DNA of 64,000 bases from NCBI RefSeq assembly GCF_000342045.1, contig NZ_AONQ01000010.1, forward strand, positions 23,540 to 87,539, written 5' to 3'. Numbering within the stretch: position 1 is the stretch's first letter; each line of letters begins with the position of its first letter. Source of the stretch: Paramagnetospirillum caucaseum. Its GTDB lineage: Bacteria; Pseudomonadota; Alphaproteobacteria; Rhodospirillales; Magnetospirillaceae. The notes under the pieces are model-generated. The model saw nothing but the letters and a program-made list of their open reading frames with translations. It did not search any database and was not told the origin of the DNA. Below are positions 17,199 through 25,644 of this stretch, one piece after another. Made by a program: the position numbers and the translations under genes.

Positions 17199-19415
17199 TC
17201 AGAATTTCAGCGGCTGCGGGCAGGTGGTGCTGGTGTTCATCCAGTCGCCGAGCGCGTAGTTGCTGGACGGCCCCCAGGCAAAGACGGTGCCGTCCATGGC
17301 CAGGGCGTAGGCGTCCTGCTCGGAATTGCCGGTGCCGTCGTGATAGCCCGAGCAGCCGATACGGCGGATGCGGCCATGGTATTTCGGCGGGAACCCGACC
17401 ATGCGGAACACGGTAGTCGGGTTGGAGGCGTTGGGGGTGCCGATGAACGAACCGCCCCATCCGGCGGTCATGGGATAGCCGCTGCGCCGCGCGATGCGGT
17501 CGGCGGCCGAGGCGTGCCGCAGCAGCAGAACGCTGTTGTAGTGGTACTGGGTGGCCTGACTGATGCCGGTGGTCGGCGACACCACCTGGGAAACATGCTC
17601 GACGCCGGGCACCAGGACGGGAGCCTGTCGGCTGTTGGTGTCGCCCAGGCCGAGCTGGCCGTTGACGTTGCTGCCCCAGGCCCAGAACTGGCCGTTCTTG
17701 GTGAGCGCGAAGCCACCCGCGCCGTAGCGGGCGCCATAGGCCCAAATGTCGATCACCTTGGTCGGGTCGGTCAGCCCGAGATTGCCGACCAGCACCGGGG
17801 TGCTGCGGTTGGTGGCGGAATTGTCGCCAAGCTGCCCGCTCTCATTGAAGCCCATGGCGTAGAGCTTGCCGTCGGCCTTGATGTAGAAAGCGAAATTGTG
17901 GGAGCCGTAGCCGGTATTGGCGCACTTCACTACCGGCCCCGCGTCGATCAGCACGGGAGCCGGCTTGTTGGCGGTGGTGTTGTCGCCCAGATTGCCATAG
18001 CCGTTGTAGCCGCAGCCGAACAGCTTGTTGTCGGTGGTGACGAAGTGGGCGAAGCCGTAGGAACCGCCCGCCGCCACGATGCACTGAACATTGCGTTCGA
18101 AGGCGGCAATCTTGGTGGGGATGGTGCGGTTGCCGGTGTCGCCGTGCCCGAGCTGGCCATAGCCGTTGTAGCCCCATGAATAGACGTCGCCGTCCTCCAT
18201 CAGGGCGTAGAACGCGGCGCTGCTGTCCGGCCCGGTCATGCAGGTCGACACCACGTAGCGGACGGGACCGGCATCGCCGGGAAAGACGATGCGCTGGAAG
18301 AAGGATTTGCTCGAGGTGGTGCCGTCGCCCTGCTGGCCATGCCCACCGTAGCCGGTGGCGTACAACTCCCCGTTCTCCAGCAGGATCATGGTGGTGCCGT
18401 AATTGCCGTAGACCTGCTTGACCCCGGCATCGGTCAGGTTCTCGGTGACCAGATGTCCTTCGTTGGTGGTGCGGTACAGCGCGGGCTGGAAATGGGGCCA
18501 ATGCGAGCCGTTGGGATCACCGTTGCGGCCCGAGTTGGAATTGCCCCACACGGAGAGACCGCCGTCCTGGAACACCGCCGCCAGGCCGCGATAGATCGAC
18601 GTCATGCCGGACTGGCTGTCGGCGTCCCAGATACCCAAATTGGCATGATCGGGAAAGACCACCGCGTCGGTGATCAGGTTGGCCAGGCGCGGCGTGGCGA
18701 CCAGCGACACCGCATTGCCCCCCGCGACAAGATTGTCGTCGACGTCGCGGGCGATGAAATCGTTGGCGAGATACTTGGCCCGCGAGTTGGTGCGCCCGGG
18801 CGGCAACAGCCATTTGGGATCGGTGCCGTCCGAGCCGAGGAACTTGGACGCGGCGCCCAGCGGCAGACGGGCATTGCCGGAACCATTGCGGACATAGAGA
18901 TCGCCGCGCACCGCCAGGGGCGATGCGGCGGCGGCAATTGCGGCGGTAACATCGAAGACGTGATCGACCATGCCGCCGTCGCAGAACAGCCAGCCCTTAC
19001 TGCCGGGCGCGACGGAAATCGCAGCCACCGTCTGGATCGCGGTCTTGATCCGTACCGGGAGCGGCAGTTCGTTGTCGATGATGACGGCCCAGCCCCGCGA
19101 CGGGGCGATCACCACGACCTCAGCAGCGGTGAAGTCCCCCTGGTCCGGGCGCAGCACGACGACATCGCGCGCCACCTGATCCTCGGTCAGCGTCAGGATG
19201 GCGGTGCCGGGGGCCGCGACAGTGACGATCTCGGCGGGCTTTCCGGCTTCGTCCAGCAAGCCGAGCAAGGCATCGGCGCCGACCATGGATTCGACCGCCT
19301 TGGCCAGATAGACGAGGTCGCGGGCGGACGCCCCGTCCTCGCCGGCTGCTGCGGCCAGGGTTTGGCCTCGGCCCTTGATCGTCTCGATCAGGCCGCGAAG
19401 GGATGCGATGGACAC
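17199..19415 (-). CDS. RCC1-repeat tail fibre/receptor-binding protein
   Basis: A 738-aa protein. Residues 1-290 are a fibre-like N-terminal part with a short helix, beta segments and GDLYVRNGSGNARLPLGA typical of phage fibre linkers. About residues 300-740 hold RCC1-type repeats, each around 50 aa, recognisable by WGNSNSGRNGD, WGYNGYGQLGHGDTGNRTIP, CGYNGYGNLGDNTTANKPAP, MGFNESGQLGDNSATNRSTP and WGSNVNGQLGLGDTNSRQAP. They should fold into a beta-propeller. In a phage tail this is a plausible receptor-binding head. It sits between the tape-measure side and the tip genes, with a coiled-coil protein and small proteins around it. RCC1 domains are unusual in phage fibres. Confidence 0.75.
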   Translation of the reverse strand: MSIASLRGLIETIKGRGQTLAAAAGEDGASARDLVYLAKAVESMVGADALLGLLDEAGKPAEIVTVAAPGTAILTLTEDQVARDVVVLRPDQGDFTAAEVVVIAPSRGWAVIIDNELPLPVRIKTAIQTVAAISVAPGSKGWLFCDGGMVDHVFDVTAAIAAAASPLAVRGDLYVRNGSGNARLPLGAASKFLGSDGTDPKWLLPPGRTNSRAKYLANDFIARDVDDNLVAGGNAVSLVATPRLANLITDAVVFPDHANLGIWDADSQSGMTSIYRGLAAVFQDGGLSVWGNSNSGRNGDPNGSHWPHFQPALYRTTNEGHLVTENLTDAGVKQVYGNYGTTMILLENGELYATGYGGHGQQGDGTTSSKSFFQRIVFPGDAGPVRYVVSTCMTGPDSSAAFYALMEDGDVYSWGYNGYGQLGHGDTGNRTIPTKIAAFERNVQCIVAAGGSYGFAHFVTTDNKLFGCGYNGYGNLGDNTTANKPAPVLIDAGPVVKCANTGYGSHNFAFYIKADGKLYAMGFNESGQLGDNSATNRSTPVLVGNLGLTDPTKVIDIWAYGARYGAGGFALTKNGQFWAWGSNVNGQLGLGDTNSRQAPVLVPGVEHVSQVVSPTTGISQATQYHYNSVLLLRHASAADRIARRSGYPMTAGWGGSFIGTPNASNPTTVFRMVGFPPKYHGRIRRIGCSGYHDGTGNSEQDAYALAMDGTVFAWGPSSNYALGDWMNTSTTCPQPLKF

Positions 19416-20807: not shown

Positions 20808-21305
20808 TTACCAGCGATTGGTGACCGGCAGGCCGGCATGCAGGGCGGAATGCAACATGTCGATGGTGGCGAACAGCGCCGGCACGTCCTCTGCCAGCAG
20901 GATCTCCAGCGCCCCCTCGTCGAGCATGGGGCGCTCGCGGATTTCCAACACCGAGGTGACGATCCAAATCCCGCCCCGACTGGGCACCGCCTTGTAGGGA
21001 GCGTTGCTCTGGCCGAGGAAACGGGCCTCGTGCCCGGTGACGCCGACACCGCCCAGCAGGTCGATCGCAAACCATTCCGCGCCGTCGGCCAGTTTCAGGC
21101 GGAACCATGCCTCGAAGGTGGCGAAGTCGGTTTGCGATAGCCGCCAGCGCACCGGGATGCGGGTGGGCGTGCCGGTGAAGCGGCGCCGCTGCCGCGCCGG
21201 TCCCGCCTCCATGTCGGTGCGGGAGGTGGCGTCCTGCGGCTCGATGGCATAGCCGTCGAAGGTCGGCAGGGGCAGCCGGACGGGCCAGGAGATGGTGGTG
21301 GTCAT
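20808..21305 (-). CDS. minor tail protein, possibly lambda M/distal-tail-like
   Basis: A 165-aa protein with a beta-rich pattern. The motif FATFEAWFRLKLADGAEWFA near residues 60-80 recalls the central strand-helix part of gpM/DUF2460-type distal tail proteins. Its place straight after the tape measure corresponds to lambda M. The start at 21305 overlaps the tape-measure stop by 4 bases. The assignment rests on position and pattern and is tentative. Confidence 0.5.
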   Translation of the reverse strand: MTTTISWPVRLPLPTFDGYAIEPQDATSRTDMEAGPARQRRRFTGTPTRIPVRWRLSQTDFATFEAWFRLKLADGAEWFAIDLLGGVGVTGHEARFLGQSNAPYKAVPSRGGIWIVTSVLEIRERPMLDEGALEILLAEDVPALFATIDMLHSALHAGLPVTNRW

Positions 21306-23863
21306 CGATAGCTTCCCGCCGCCGGGTTCAGCCCATAGCGATGCTCCAGCACCGGGGCCATGCCTTCGCCGCGGCCGATGCGGCGACTCATGCGCCCCTC
21401 GATCTCCTCGACGATGATGTCGAGATGGATGCGGCCATCCGCCCCCTGGGATTGCTCGGCGCGGGCCTGGGTGCCGGACGCGTTGTTGTTGACCGTCACC
21501 ACCACGCCGACCGACGCCGGCTGCGACAAGGCGGCATTCAGGATGCGATCGGCATTGTCCATCTGCCGGGGCGTGAAGACGCCCTCACCGACGCGGGCGA
21601 CGATGGGGCGCTCTCCGGCCACCAGACCACCGCCGTGGAACTTCGGCGCATTGGCGAAAGCCGAGGGGTTGAACGAACGGATCTCCAGCCGGTCGAGACC
21701 AACCAAGCCACCGGTATGGGCGATGGCGAAGGCGCCGGTGTCTGGCACAGGGACAGAGCCGCCGCTACCGGCCCCAGCCGATCCGGTACCGGAGAAGAAG
21801 CTTCCGATGCCGGCGATCAGGCCGCCGAATAGTCCACCGCTGGCGCCGCCGAGCAAGGGCGCCACCACCGCCATCCGCCAGGCGGCGCGCAAGGCTTCCT
21901 CGGCCAAGGTGTTGAACAGGTCGCCCGCCGCCAGCTTGCCGGTGGTGGCCCATTTGACGAAGGCATCCTCGCTGGACTTCAGCATGCCGGTGACAACACG
22001 CTCGGCACCGCGGGCGGCGTCGGACGAATCCTCGACATAGGCCGCCAGGGCGCGCTTGGCACCGTCCGACCATTCCCTGGACGCCGCCAGCTTGCGCTTC
22101 TCGGCCGCCTCGATGGCGCGGGCATGGGTGTCGGCATCGAGCGCGCCCTGGGCCAGCAGGTCGTTCAGCTCGCGCAATGTATCGGCGTATTCCTGCTCGG
22201 CGGTGCGGTGCTGGCGGGCCAGTTCCTTGCCCCGCGTGCGGGCGTCTGCCTCCTCCTTCAGCGCCCGCTGAAGCTCGTCGAGCGCCTGTTTCTGGTCGAA
22301 CAGTTCCCCGGCCAGTCGGGCCGCCTCGGCGCGGTCGTTGGCCGACGACTCCTTGGGCAGTCGCGACACCGACTGGTCGATGGCGGCCTGCCGGGGCTGC
22401 CACGGGGCGGAAAGCTCGCGCTGGAGATCGTCGAGCACCTTGCGGGTCTGCTCGGCAGCACGGAGGCGGGCCTCGGCCAGCGGCTTCTCGATAGCCTCGA
22501 CCTTCCGTGCCGCCACCTGCCGCAACAGGGCGATTTCGCGGTCGACATCGCCCGCATCGACCCCCGGCAGCGATGCCTTCTTTCTGGCCGTTTCGATGTC
22601 ACGGGCCAGTTGGGTCTCGATGGCTGCGATCTTGCCGGCGGCATCGGTGGCCGCCTTGACCTTCTCCTCCTCCAGCGCCTTCAGCCGCACCGACATGGCC
22701 TCGGCATTGCGGTCGCGCTCGGTCGCCTGGCGGCCGGACTCGCCTTGGCCACGCTCGGCTTCGAAGGCCGCCACCTCAGTGCGGCCCTTCTCGACCAGGG
22801 CGTCGATGTCGCGGCGGAGTAGGTCGGCCTGCCGGCGCAGATCTGCCATGCGGCGGCCGGTGACGCCGATGCTCTGGTATTCGGCGATCCGGCCCTCGAC
22901 CTCGACCAGTTGCAGGCTCTTGGCCGCCACCTGGGCGGCGATGTCGGGGCCTTTCAGCAGGTCGCGGATGCCATCGACCATGCCGGTGAGGTCGTGCAGC
23001 ACGCCCTGCGCGCCGCGCCCGACCGTGCTGGTGCGCGCGATCTCCTCCAGCAGGTTGCCCCAGGCGGCGGCGAGATGGTGGGCGGCGCCGGTCAGACCGG
23101 CCGCTTCCGCCGCCCCGGCGCCGCCGACCTGTTGCTCCAGGGCGTCGAGCACGATCCTTTGGGCACCGGCGACATCGCCGGTCTCCACCAGCGAGCGGAT
23201 CACCTCCTTCTGGGTGGCGGAGAACGACACGCCGACCCGCTTCAGCGCCGAGATGCCCTCGATGGGATCCTCCAGCGCCTTGCCCAGTTGGGTGGCCGAA
23301 GACGACAGATCCTGGCGGAACACCGCCGACAGGTCCTGGGCCAGGCGGATCGCACGGGTGAACGTCTCGCCCGACACCGAGCGGAAGGTCGCCATGACGG
23401 CGGACGCATCCATCACGCCCTCGGCGGTGGCCAGCGTGCCAGTTTCCATCTCGTCGGCCAGCGCGGCCAATTGGCCGGCGGTCAACCCCGAGGCGGCGCC
23501 GGTCGCCTTCAGCACCGCCTCCAGCCGGCGCAGCGACTGGTCGGCGGATTCCATCTCGCGCACGCCCTGGACCAGGGCGGCGCCGACGGCTCCCACCGCT
23601 GCCGCGGCGATCAGACCGGTGCGCCCGGTGGCCATCAACGCATCGCCGAACAGGCCCATCCGCCCGGCCATGCCCTCGACCACGCCGCGCACTCCCTGGC
23701 CGACCTCGTTGATCGCCAGCAGCGCCTTCGACGCCGGCTGTGCCGCCCGCTCGATCCGCTCCAGCGCCCGGCGGCCGTCCTCGCCCAATTGCATCAGGGC
23801 GCGGCGGAACACCTCGCCGTCTTCAAGGGCAAGGCGGATGGAGACGGTGCGGGCGGCAGTCAT
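21302..23863 (-). CDS. H: tail tape measure protein
   Basis: An 853-aa protein with long helical and coiled-coil regions. It has a hydrophobic segment near residues 80-110 (TGRTGLIAAAAVGAVGAALV), the conserved GLTAGQLAALADEME and FTRAIRLAQDLSAVFRQDL blocks of prophage tape measures near 120-195, and a Gly-rich hydrophobic stretch near 680-730. It sets tail length and would be ejected into the host with the DNA. It follows the G/GT frameshift gene, as in lambda. At 853 residues and roughly 1.5 angstroms per residue it predicts a tail of about 120-130 nm. Confidence 0.9.
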   Translation of the reverse strand: MTAARTVSIRLALEDGEVFRRALMQLGEDGRRALERIERAAQPASKALLAINEVGQGVRGVVEGMAGRMGLFGDALMATGRTGLIAAAAVGAVGAALVQGVREMESADQSLRRLEAVLKATGAASGLTAGQLAALADEMETGTLATAEGVMDASAVMATFRSVSGETFTRAIRLAQDLSAVFRQDLSSSATQLGKALEDPIEGISALKRVGVSFSATQKEVIRSLVETGDVAGAQRIVLDALEQQVGGAGAAEAAGLTGAAHHLAAAWGNLLEEIARTSTVGRGAQGVLHDLTGMVDGIRDLLKGPDIAAQVAAKSLQLVEVEGRIAEYQSIGVTGRRMADLRRQADLLRRDIDALVEKGRTEVAAFEAERGQGESGRQATERDRNAEAMSVRLKALEEEKVKAATDAAGKIAAIETQLARDIETARKKASLPGVDAGDVDREIALLRQVAARKVEAIEKPLAEARLRAAEQTRKVLDDLQRELSAPWQPRQAAIDQSVSRLPKESSANDRAEAARLAGELFDQKQALDELQRALKEEADARTRGKELARQHRTAEQEYADTLRELNDLLAQGALDADTHARAIEAAEKRKLAASREWSDGAKRALAAYVEDSSDAARGAERVVTGMLKSSEDAFVKWATTGKLAAGDLFNTLAEEALRAAWRMAVVAPLLGGASGGLFGGLIAGIGSFFSGTGSAGAGSGGSVPVPDTGAFAIAHTGGLVGLDRLEIRSFNPSAFANAPKFHGGGLVAGERPIVARVGEGVFTPRQMDNADRILNAALSQPASVGVVVTVNNNASGTQARAEQSQGADGRIHLDIIVEEIEGRMSRRIGRGEGMAPVLEHRYGLNPAAGSYR

Positions 23864-23957: not shown

Positions 23958-24673
23958 TCATTCACGATGTCTTTCGGCCAGGGCCTCGCGCATTCCCGCT
24001 TCCGCGAACGGCAGCAGCAACGCCAGCGCCCGTTCGTCGAAGCCCAGGGCACGGCCGTGGGCGAGCAGGCCGGCGATGTCGAAGCGGGCCGGATCGGCGC
24101 GCATCAGCATCTCCCATGCCTGCCAGCCTTCGAGGGTGGCGGGTTCATTCAGGTCGGTGGGGCAGCTTCCGTCACCGGCGCAGGGGGCGCCGTCGTCGCG
24201 GCACTGGCGGCAATATCCAGGCCCGCCGCCGAAGTGCCATCGGCTGCGGGCCTGGAGACGTTTCCCTCGGCGAGGACCGCCTCATGGGGCGCGGTGTAGA
24301 GGCCGACGAAGGCCTCGGCCACGCCCTGGATCAGCATCAGGTCAGCGACAGTGGTGTCGGACACCGCAGCCGGAGCGCCGTCGGCATCCAGCACGCCTTC
24401 CCAGTCCAGGATGGCTGTGCGGGCCAGACTTTGAGCGAACAGCAATTGCGAGAACCCCGCCACCGCATCGTCGTCGCGCAGATCGGGCAGGCCGGAGACA
24501 TCGCCGCCGACCGCTTTGAGGTCGGCGAACTCGCGGGCGACCGCGCGGGCCTTGCGCCAGCCCTTGATGCGGGCTGCCTCATAGGTGGCGGTGGTCAGCG
24601 GGCGGACATGGAGCCGCACGCCGAAGGGCAGATCAAGCCAATACGGCTCCTTGGGCAGGCACAGACGGATCAT
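23958..24673 (-). CDS. GT: GT-like tail assembly chaperone made by -1 frameshift
   Basis: Reading codons 1-138 of the chaperone gene, slipping -1 at GGGAAAC (24266-24260) and continuing in the second frame to the TGA at 23958 gives a 238-aa product. The second frame has no good start of its own and reads sensibly for 100 codons: RLQARSRWHFGGGPGY, then four cysteines (C-R-Q-C ... C ... C), then EGWQAWEMLMRADPARFDIA and a helical end. It lies between the tail tube and tape-measure genes, where lambda makes gpGT. In lambda the T part binds the tail tube subunit and the G part coats the tape measure. The fusion is inferred from the sequence; expression is unproven. Confidence 0.75.
24149..24673 (-). 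CDS. G: tail assembly chaperone (lambda G-like)
   Basis: A 174-aa protein read from the ATG at 24673, just after the tail tube stop. It begins MIRLCLPKEPYWLDLPFGVR and continues with helical segments (ATYEAARIKGWRKARAVARE; DTTVADLMLIQGVAEAFVGL), then an Ala/Pro-rich tail past the slip site. The C-terminal 36 residues after the slip site look low in complexity, whereas the alternative frame looks folded. It should bind the tape measure during tail assembly and be absent from the finished virion. Confidence 0.75.
   Translation of the reverse strand: MIRLCLPKEPYWLDLPFGVRLHVRPLTTATYEAARIKGWRKARAVAREFADLKAVGGDVSGLPDLRDDDAVAGFSQLLFAQSLARTAILDWEGVLDADGAPAAVSDTTVADLMLIQGVAEAFVGLYTAPHEAVLAEGNVSRPAADGTSAAGLDIAASAATTAPPAPVTEAAPPT
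24260..24266 (-). promoter_or_regulatory. -1 ribosomal frameshift slippery heptamer GGGAAAC
   Basis: On the minus strand the heptamer sits in the zero frame as G GGA AAC, the X XXY YYZ pattern, at codons 137-138 of the chaperone gene. It is almost the lambda site (GGGAAAG). A possible short stem, GGCGGC with GCCGCC (24230-24225 with 24211-24206), lies about 29 bases downstream, which is farther than usual for a stimulator. Confidence 0.75.
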
Positions 24674-24684
24674 GGGGCGGGCCT

Positions 24685-25644
24685 TCAATACGAGGGGACA
24701 TCGTTGATCAGGGTGACGCGCAGCAGATACCCCGCCACCGGATCGCGGGCAGCGCGCCAGTCGTAAGCCGCCTGGATGCCGCCGGGGCCTTTGATCTCCT
24801 GCTTCTTCTTGGGGCAAAACACGCGGGGCAGATGGAACCGCAGGGCATAATCAGTGCCGGGGATGGTGAAGCCGTACTGCATCTCCACCGGGTTTTCGGC
24901 GGCGATGGCTGCGGTCAGGGTGGTGTCGGTGCCAAAGCGCACCTCGACCGAGCCCTCGGCGGTGGCCTCGGTCTCATCGACGCCGTCGATCAGACCGTCG
25001 GAGCGGATGGTCTCGACCGGCTCCAGGTTGTTGGAGAACGACAGTCGCCCGCCGACCACGTTGGCCAGCGGCTCGCCACCGACCAGGATGCTGCCGCTGC
25101 CCTGGCTGAAGCGGCGCAGCGCGAAGCCGGCCGGCGCGGCATCAATGGTGGCGGCAGCTTCGGTCTCGCCTTGGGCGATCACCGCGATGGTGGCGTTGGC
25201 GGGTCCGGAGCGGGCCATATCGAAGGCGAGGCTGCCCAGCTTGGCCCCGGTGTGGCGGAAGAATTTGGGCGTCACCAGGGTCGGGTGGCCGATTTCCAGG
25301 GCCAGGCTCGGCAGTGAGCCGCCCGAGGCGAAGGCATGGGTGAAGCCGGTGCCGGCATCGCCGCTGGTGGCGGGGGCGCCGAACAATCCCTTCAGCCAGA
25401 AGCCGAGACTGCGCAGATCGAGCGGCACACCGAATTCGCCCTCGTCCTTGACCGCCTCGTAATAGGGATCCTGGGCGTCGCGCCCCTGGCCCAGCAGCGG
25501 GTCGTAACCCAGCGGCCGCTCGGCGCCCAGGCTGGTTTCCTTGAAGGACAGCCTGGTGTAGCCGTCGGCCGGCATGGTGCCATAGGCCGCCTCGAAGGCG
25601 GCCAGCAGGATGCAGTCGGCGCCGTAGGCGCGCGTCTTCGACAT
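24685..25644 (-). CDS. V: major tail tube protein
   Basis: A 319-aa protein from the ATG at 25644, with the phage tail tube pattern: MSKTRAYGADCILLAAFEAA, YTRLSFKETSLGAERPLGYD, SLGFWLKGLFGAPATSG, and C-terminal beta strands with VEMQYGFTIPGTDYALRFHL. It forms the hexameric rings of the non-contractile tail. It is followed after 11 bases by the G/GT chaperone gene. The longer frame to 25830 overlaps the previous gene and is rejected. Confidence 0.85.
   Translation of the reverse strand: MSKTRAYGADCILLAAFEAAYGTMPADGYTRLSFKETSLGAERPLGYDPLLGQGRDAQDPYYEAVKDEGEFGVPLDLRSLGFWLKGLFGAPATSGDAGTGFTHAFASGGSLPSLALEIGHPTLVTPKFFRHTGAKLGSLAFDMARSGPANATIAVIAQGETEAAATIDAAPAGFALRRFSQGSGSILVGGEPLANVVGGRLSFSNNLEPVETIRSDGLIDGVDETEATAEGSVEVRFGTDTTLTAAIAAENPVEMQYGFTIPGTDYALRFHLPRVFCPKKKQEIKGPGGIQAAYDWRAARDPVAGYLLRVTLINDVPSY

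What the first reader, a model, noticed from the sequence alone, without database searches (positions are those of the whole stretch)
23958..24673. Lambda G/GT-type programmed -1 frameshift in the tail chaperone gene
A textbook slippery heptamer G GGA AAC (24266-24260) sits in the right frame of the chaperone gene. The -1 frame continues for exactly 100 sensible codons and has no start of its own. The gene lies between tail tube and tape measure, as in lambda. The usual ORF call misses the 100-residue T part entirely.
Basis: partly seen in the sequence, partly recalled or inferred. Interest (0 to 1): 0.75.

Follow-up and report, generated by a model that had tools for sequence, protein, structure and literature searches.

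The report
Hairpin-boosted frameshift in phage tail chaperone
A prophage gene for a likely tail-building helper protein carries a slippery sequence and an RNA hairpin, both conserved in its relatives, that are predicted to make some ribosomes slip back one base and add a second, 100-residue part; this is a well-known phage device, here in a family whose second part is listed in protein databases only as a fragment of unknown function.

Summary
G GGA AAC lies at 24266-24260 in phase with the 174-codon ORF 24673-24149, and the -1 frame then runs exactly 100 codons. The ORF matches the tail-chaperone family phrog_313 and lies between tail tube and tape measure genes. The -1 frame matches DUF7697 (PF24752), of unknown function, which covers only its C-terminal half. 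Of 54 places found through DUF7697, 51 carry GGGAAAC or AAAAAAC where the conserved -1 domain begins; of 80 viral loci 79 have a heptamer there. Substitution periodicity switches to the -1 frame after the site; 90 of 124 loci have no start codon for it. A hairpin just downstream is more stable than coding explains (window z -5.1; 64 of 66 loci negative) and absent in lambda by the same test. Two Rhodobacter phage records already annotate the homologous gene as a joined CDS. So: a new member of a known kind. Added value: the DUF7697 assignment, the hairpin, and a conserved four-Cys T domain. No frameshift product has been measured.

The parts
24149..24673 (-). G part: tail assembly chaperone ORF, 0 frame, 174 codons (138 up to and including the slip site, 36 after it) plus stop
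   Evidence: phrog_313 'Tail assembly chaperone' E 1.7e-9; all 25 members of G alignment A3 match it
24260..24266 (-). slippery heptamer G GGA AAC in the phase of the G frame
   Evidence: GGGAAAC or AAAAAAC at the same place in 51 of 54 places, the window included
24216..24256 (-). predicted stimulatory hairpin: 11 pairs, one A.G mismatch, 5 pairs, 7-base loop; starts 3 bases after the heptamer (the stem core shared by the family starts 7 bases after it)
   Evidence: pairs; z -5.07, 0 of 300 codon-preserving shuffles as stable; z -4.55, 0 of 2000
23958..24260 (-). T part: -1 frame, 100 codons plus stop; four-Cys segment (Y-C-x2-C-x6-C-x5-C) then helical DUF7697 segment
   Evidence: PF24752 E 2.6e-8 and phrog_11212 E 4.5e-6; alignment A1; AlphaFold2 model pLDDT 92.5
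24688..25461 (-). tail tube protein (stretch searched, not the whole ORF), upstream neighbour
   Evidence: PF18906 Phage_tube_2 E 1.4e-38, phrog_290 minor tail protein E 9e-41
21302..23863 (-). tape measure protein, downstream neighbour
   Evidence: PF09718 Tape_meas_lam_C E 3e-22 and tape measure PHROGs

Best explanation
This is likely a tail assembly chaperone gene in which a minority of ribosomes would slip back one base at G GGA AAC (24266-24260), predicted to be helped by the hairpin at 24256-24216, and would then read 100 codons of the -1 frame to give a 238-residue G-T fusion beside the 174-residue G protein. Shown by sequence and comparison: heptamer and phase, its conservation, the coding constraint on the -1 frame that begins at the heptamer, the lack of a start codon for that frame in 90 of 124 loci, and a hairpin more stable than its coding explains. 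Inferred: that ribosomes do slip, at what rate, that the hairpin stimulates it, and that, as in lambda, G binds the tape measure protein while the T part brings in tail tube subunits. Also inferred: that the four cysteines of the T part bind a metal ion.
For: Phase and heptamer. 54 DUF7697 places in 35 of 199 genomes, found by a profile that does not cover the slip region (the window is one of the 54): 49 heptamers by script, 36 GGGAAAC and 13 AAAAAAC, 48 of the 49 with a G-like ORF read into them in the 0 frame, and two more heptamers by eye (L005, L020). 80 viral loci: 75 by script, four more on inspection incl. three AAAAAAG; 73 of the 75 with a G-like ORF, the other two cut by the contig end. 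Phylum sample: 24 of 27 non-own places. The first two T codons are only GGG AAA or AAA AAA in 124 of 124 loci, though Lys elsewhere in T is 80 AAA to 90 AAG. In 28 close relatives differences fall on G-frame position 3 before the site (9144 of 12181) and on T-frame position 3 after it, where both frames are open (1289 of 1872). 90 of 124 loci have no ATG/GTG/TTG in the -1 frame ahead of conserved Trp10. Hairpin: 64 of 66 loci negative, 48 with z below -2, against 3 of 132 control windows. RcKemmy and RcOceanus records annotate a joined chaperone CDS with GGGAAAC and a hairpin at the site.
Against: No expression data. 34 of 124 loci have some start codon in the -1 frame ahead of Trp10, mostly 20 or more codons upstream of the site, inside G. 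In one search, L034-L036, all of one genome with Ns or missing bases, lack a readable heptamer, and L047 has the heptamer but only 48 open codons of G before it. In the phylum sample L161 (a likely remnant without G), L184 (broken by a stop, near a contig end) and L169 (below cut-off) do not fit; viral L090 has its G out of phase. The hairpin is not more stable than shuffles in L071 (z 0.0) and L079 (z +0.2), and 18 of 66 loci are above z -2. The number of pairs with changes on both sides does not stand out from shuffles (79 and 32 of 500 reach it). No sequence similarity to lambda G or T and no clear fold match for T or G.
Confidence: 0.93

Rival explanations
1. The T part is a separate small gene translated from its own start (ATG 24110) by coupling or reinitiation; the frames merely overlap.
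For: ATG codons exist at T residues 53 and 55, and Pfam and PHROGs define the family only from about there. The Nostoc phage record annotates two separate chaperone ORFs.
Against: A strongly conserved stretch (K-R, W-H-F, G-G, Y-C-x2-C) lies before that ATG and begins at the heptamer. In 90 of 124 loci no start codon precedes it. The heptamer and the hairpin would have no role.
Confidence: 0.03
2. The G-T frame break is a decayed gene or a sequencing error.
For: Single-base frame breaks are common errors (general knowledge); one genome (G152) shows Ns at this very site in two copies.
Against: The same break at the same heptamer in 51 of 54, 79 of 80 and 24 of 27 loci, with coding constraint on both sides.
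Confidence: 0.005
3. The fusion arises by transcriptional slippage at the run of identical bases rather than by the ribosome.
For: Many relatives have A6 to A7 runs.
Against: GGGAAAC, found in 36 of the 49 script-scored places with this one included, is not a homopolymer; the phase rule X XXY YYZ and a hairpin a few bases downstream fit ribosomal slippage. That short runs slip little in transcription is recalled, not tested.
Confidence: 0.03

Closest known systems
Tail assembly chaperone genes 14/15 (RcOceanus) and 15/16 (RcKemmy) of Rhodobacter capsulatus RcC-cluster phages
   Same: Homologous G (tblastn with the window's G) and T (tblastn with the T of relative L010), annotated join, GGGAAAC and a downstream hairpin, same gene order. 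[quoted passage not shown]
   Different: 30-32% identity in G to the window; I saw the join flag in two of the 11 Rhodobacter records only. The passages seen mention no hairpin, DUF7697 or Cys motif.
Phage lambda G/GT
   Same: Gene order V-G-T-H; GGGAAAG against GGGAAAC in the same phase, -1 frame T extension. Function as reviewed in PMC5009743 (passages seen).
   Different: No detectable sequence similarity in G or T; lambda shows no hairpin by the same test (z +1.25, 908 of 1000 shuffles as stable).
HK97 tail assembly chaperone (PDB 2ob9)
   Different: Z tied with unrelated chains; no sequence match to any PDB chain at E 1.
PF24752 (DUF7697) / phrog_11212
   Same: Match the T part in all 21 T proteins of A1.
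   Different: In the window the match covers T residues 62-101 of 102 only; the families carry no function. Here they are the end of a domain that frameshifting is predicted to make.

Membership tests
Lambda G/GT-type programmed -1 frameshift of tail assembly chaperone genes | Gene between tail tube and tape measure genes | tested here: met
[quoted passage not shown]
Lambda G/GT-type programmed -1 frameshift of tail assembly chaperone genes | Conserved open -1 frame extending past the 0-frame stop | tested here: met
Lambda G/GT-type programmed -1 frameshift of tail assembly chaperone genes | Both products made at a fixed low ratio; fusion needed for tails | not testable with these tools
   needs reporter, mass spectrometry or genetics
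Lambda G and T protein families by descent | Sequence similarity to lambda gpG or gpT | tested here: not met
   no meaningful BLASTP or profile hit; distant descent not excluded
phrog_313 tail assembly chaperone | Significant profile match of the G part | tested here: met
   window E 1.7e-9; 25 of 25 members of A3
PF24752 (DUF7697) | Match above the curated cut-off | tested here: met
   34.1 bits against 27
HK97/lambda tail chaperone fold | Predicted G structure resembles 2ob9 | tested here: inconclusive
Metal-binding (zinc) domain | Four conserved cysteines spaced as a metal site | tested here: inconclusive
   Y/F-C-x2-C..C..C in 126 of 127 T proteins scored (L082 has a longer spacing); binding itself not tested

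The most novel reading that the evidence does not exclude
A distinct tail-chaperone frameshift cassette in which one stretch of bases serves three ends at once: the slip signal, a strong stimulatory hairpin, and the start of a metal-binding four-Cys T domain unrelated to lambda T. Metal binding by the T domain would then gate the recruitment of tail tube subunits, and DUF7697 would be the mis-annotated tail end of this domain across Alphaproteobacteria and at least one other class of its phylum.
Probability: 0.4. Interest if true: 0.5.

Novelty: new member of a known kind. Interest (0 to 1): 0.35.

Why it matters
The T part is recorded as an unknown fragment or not at all: a profile search found 1343 T-like proteins of 0.55 to 1.75 times the query length, and all 120 listed carry PF24752; the only product name shown for them is 'hypothetical protein'. 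Reading DUF7697 as the end of a frameshift product would correct these annotations and gives a simple rule (GGGAAAC or AAAAAAC plus hairpin) for joining the gene. The family also supplies a natural series of slip sites with a hairpin, useful for testing how hairpins set the G:GT ratio; lambda, which shows no such hairpin by the same test, cannot serve for that.

Tried and rejected
A pseudoknot between the hairpin loop (GGCACT) and a downstream AGTGCC looked perfect in the window, but the best loop pairing over 62 loci averages 3.97 bases against 3.90 in codon-preserving shuffles, and in the window 125 of 200 shuffles do as well: rejected.

Limits of the counts: one search looked for [GKXE]KR..W and for xKR..W in the T frame, so codon counts hold for loci with that motif (124; L034, L035 and L090 dropped, five viral and three loci without the motif not in it, of which L128, L113, L119, L134 and L090 were read). 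One of the two patterns covers the slip region at protein level. In one search a valid heptamer was preferred if a locus had two or three candidate motifs. The two hairpin shapes were assigned by which fits better, which favours the paired fraction; the undivided counts are 79.8% and 73.4% against at most 59.3% and 58.9% when slid.

Full report
What was checked. On the minus strand the ORF 24673-24149 has 174 codons, and G GGA AAC at 24266-24260 is in its phase; the -1 frame runs on for exactly 100 codons to TGA 23960-23958. The -1 frame has no ATG/GTG/TTG before its residue 53 (24110). By composition alone an in-phase X XXY YYZ heptamer occurs in 3.8% of 130-base stretches, the length of the overlap, and a GGGAAA[CG]/AAAAAA[CG] in 0.5%.

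Context. The G ORF matches phrog_313, tail assembly chaperone (1.7e-9). Upstream on the same strand lie tail tube (PF18906), tail terminator, head-tail attachment, major head, head decoration, protease, portal and terminase genes; downstream lie the tape measure gene and further structural genes. This is likely a prophage of lambda-like gene order. The window's genome holds two further copies of the G part (68% and 65% identical), each followed by DUF7697 in the -1 frame.

The -1 frame has a family. Residues 60-99 of the 100 match PF24752 (DUF7697, above the cut-off) and phrog_11212, both without function. Searching 199 related genomes with PF24752, whose matches begin some 50 residues after the slip site, gave 54 places in 35 genomes, the window's own included. 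I fetched all 54. At the start of the conserved -1 domain 49 have GGGAAAC (36) or AAAAAAC (13) by script; 48 of these have a G-like ORF in the 0 frame, the 49th (L047) only 48 open codons. L005 and L020 show a heptamer on reading. The remaining three are all in G152, whose sequence has Ns or lost bases at the site.

A heptamer stands there in 75 by script (57 AAAAAAC, 17 GGGAAAC, 1 AAAAAAA), 73 of them with a G-like ORF in the 0 frame and two (L107, L116) cut by the contig end, and in four more on inspection (three AAAAAAG, one AAAAAAC). L090 has A7 but its G lies in another frame. A sample of 398 genomes of the phylum gave matches in 14, and 27 places outside the window's genome: 23 by script and L165 by eye have the heptamer; L161 looks like a remnant without G, L184 is broken by a stop near a contig end, and L169 is below the cut-off and looks like a P-type ATPase (motif recalled). 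The places in G208 and G212, of the same phylum but another class, have it too, except L184. All 14 named loci of genome contigs have it, several being the same contigs as before; the nearest is Magnetospirillum moscoviense (98% in T), records very near the window possibly being left out.

Why the site is selected as a slip site. Residue 1 of T can be Gly or Lys, yet only GGG and AAA occur, and residue 2 is always AAA, in 124 of 124 loci that have the K-R motif, while Lys elsewhere in T is 80 AAA to 90 AAG. No heptamer half-way between AAAAAAC and GGGAAAC was seen. Among 28 close relatives, summed over all pairs (so not independent events), 9144 of 12181 differences before the site fall on G-frame position 3; after it, at +48 to +104 where both frames are open, 1289 of 1872 fall on T-frame position 3, which is position 2 of the 0 frame. 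In 90 of 124 loci no ATG/GTG/TTG stands in the -1 frame ahead of the conserved Trp10.

The hairpin. In the window 24256-24216 folds as 11 pairs, one mismatch, 5 pairs and a 7-base loop. Against shuffles of the synonymous codons of T the native region is far more stable (-35.3 against -17.8 kcal/mol, z -5.07, 0 of 300; z -4.55, 0 of 2000). Over 66 loci 64 are negative and 48 below -2, median -2.46; windows further down the same genes (60 shuffles each) give 3 of 132 below -2, median -0.09. In 13 loci whose 0 frame ends within 6 codons of the site, so that the stem is coded in one frame only, the median is -2.47. In 62 aligned rows (L018, L021 and L053, which carry an insertion, and L050, a near-duplicate of the window, left out) the stem takes two shapes: straight fits better in 31, bulged in 30, one tie; 94.5% and 78.3% of pairs form within these groups, against at most 55.3% and 49.6% when slid (grouping by fit favours this). 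Undivided, 79.8% and 73.4% of cells pair against at most 59.3% and 58.9% slid. Paired fraction and covariation score exceed all 500 shuffles; the number of pairs with changes on both sides does not stand out (79 and 32 of 500 reach it). A pseudoknot was tested and rejected. Lambda has the same kind of heptamer but no such hairpin.

Known or new. Programmed -1 frameshifting in tail chaperones is textbook (PMC5009743, PMC7618472, PMC10885494, PMC3711429: passages seen). The records of RcKemmy and RcOceanus, whose G and T are homologous to this family, annotate a joined CDS; nine further Rhodobacter records list two chaperone features, whose join flags I did not see. PMC8601537 (passages seen) calls the frameshift usual in these genes. 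No held paper contains the word DUF7697, and the searches for hairpin, zinc or secondary structure with tail-chaperone frameshifting listed no paper that by title or start of abstract is on this family; I saw listings and the passages named, no whole paper.

Noticed in passing
L034 positions 1809-1810 and L035 position 1357 (genome G152): A one-contig genome carries one or two Ns right at the slip site, so that G and T read as one frame in L035: it looks as if an assembly step had 'corrected' a programmed frameshift. Other single Ns lie elsewhere in L005 and L035.
   Followed up: partly
G000:C25:36133-36645 and G000:C24:43576-44088: The window's genome holds three copies of this chaperone module in all, the other two 68% and 65% identical in G, all with the -1 DUF7697 frame.
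   Followed up: partly
L018, L019, L021, L049, L053, L166, L168, L175, L180, L182, L183, L185: A subgroup has a two-residue insertion (QP, QQ, KP or RP) between WHF and GGG, within the hairpin; in those folded the stem re-forms in another register, as if protein insertion and RNA stem had changed together.
   Followed up: partly
L137 and L138: A Nostoc phage and a Synechococcus phage record carry the module at identical coordinates within the stretch; both are 27% identical in G to the window. L138 names the gene at the tail tube position a XerD recombinase, probably wrongly.
   Followed up: no
L161: What looks like a prophage remnant in which a tail-tube-like frame runs up to the end of T with G missing.
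   Followed up: no
window 17202-19415: A large ORF downstream of the tape measure gene matches PHROGs called 'regulator of chromosome condensation' and a tail protein family.
   Followed up: no
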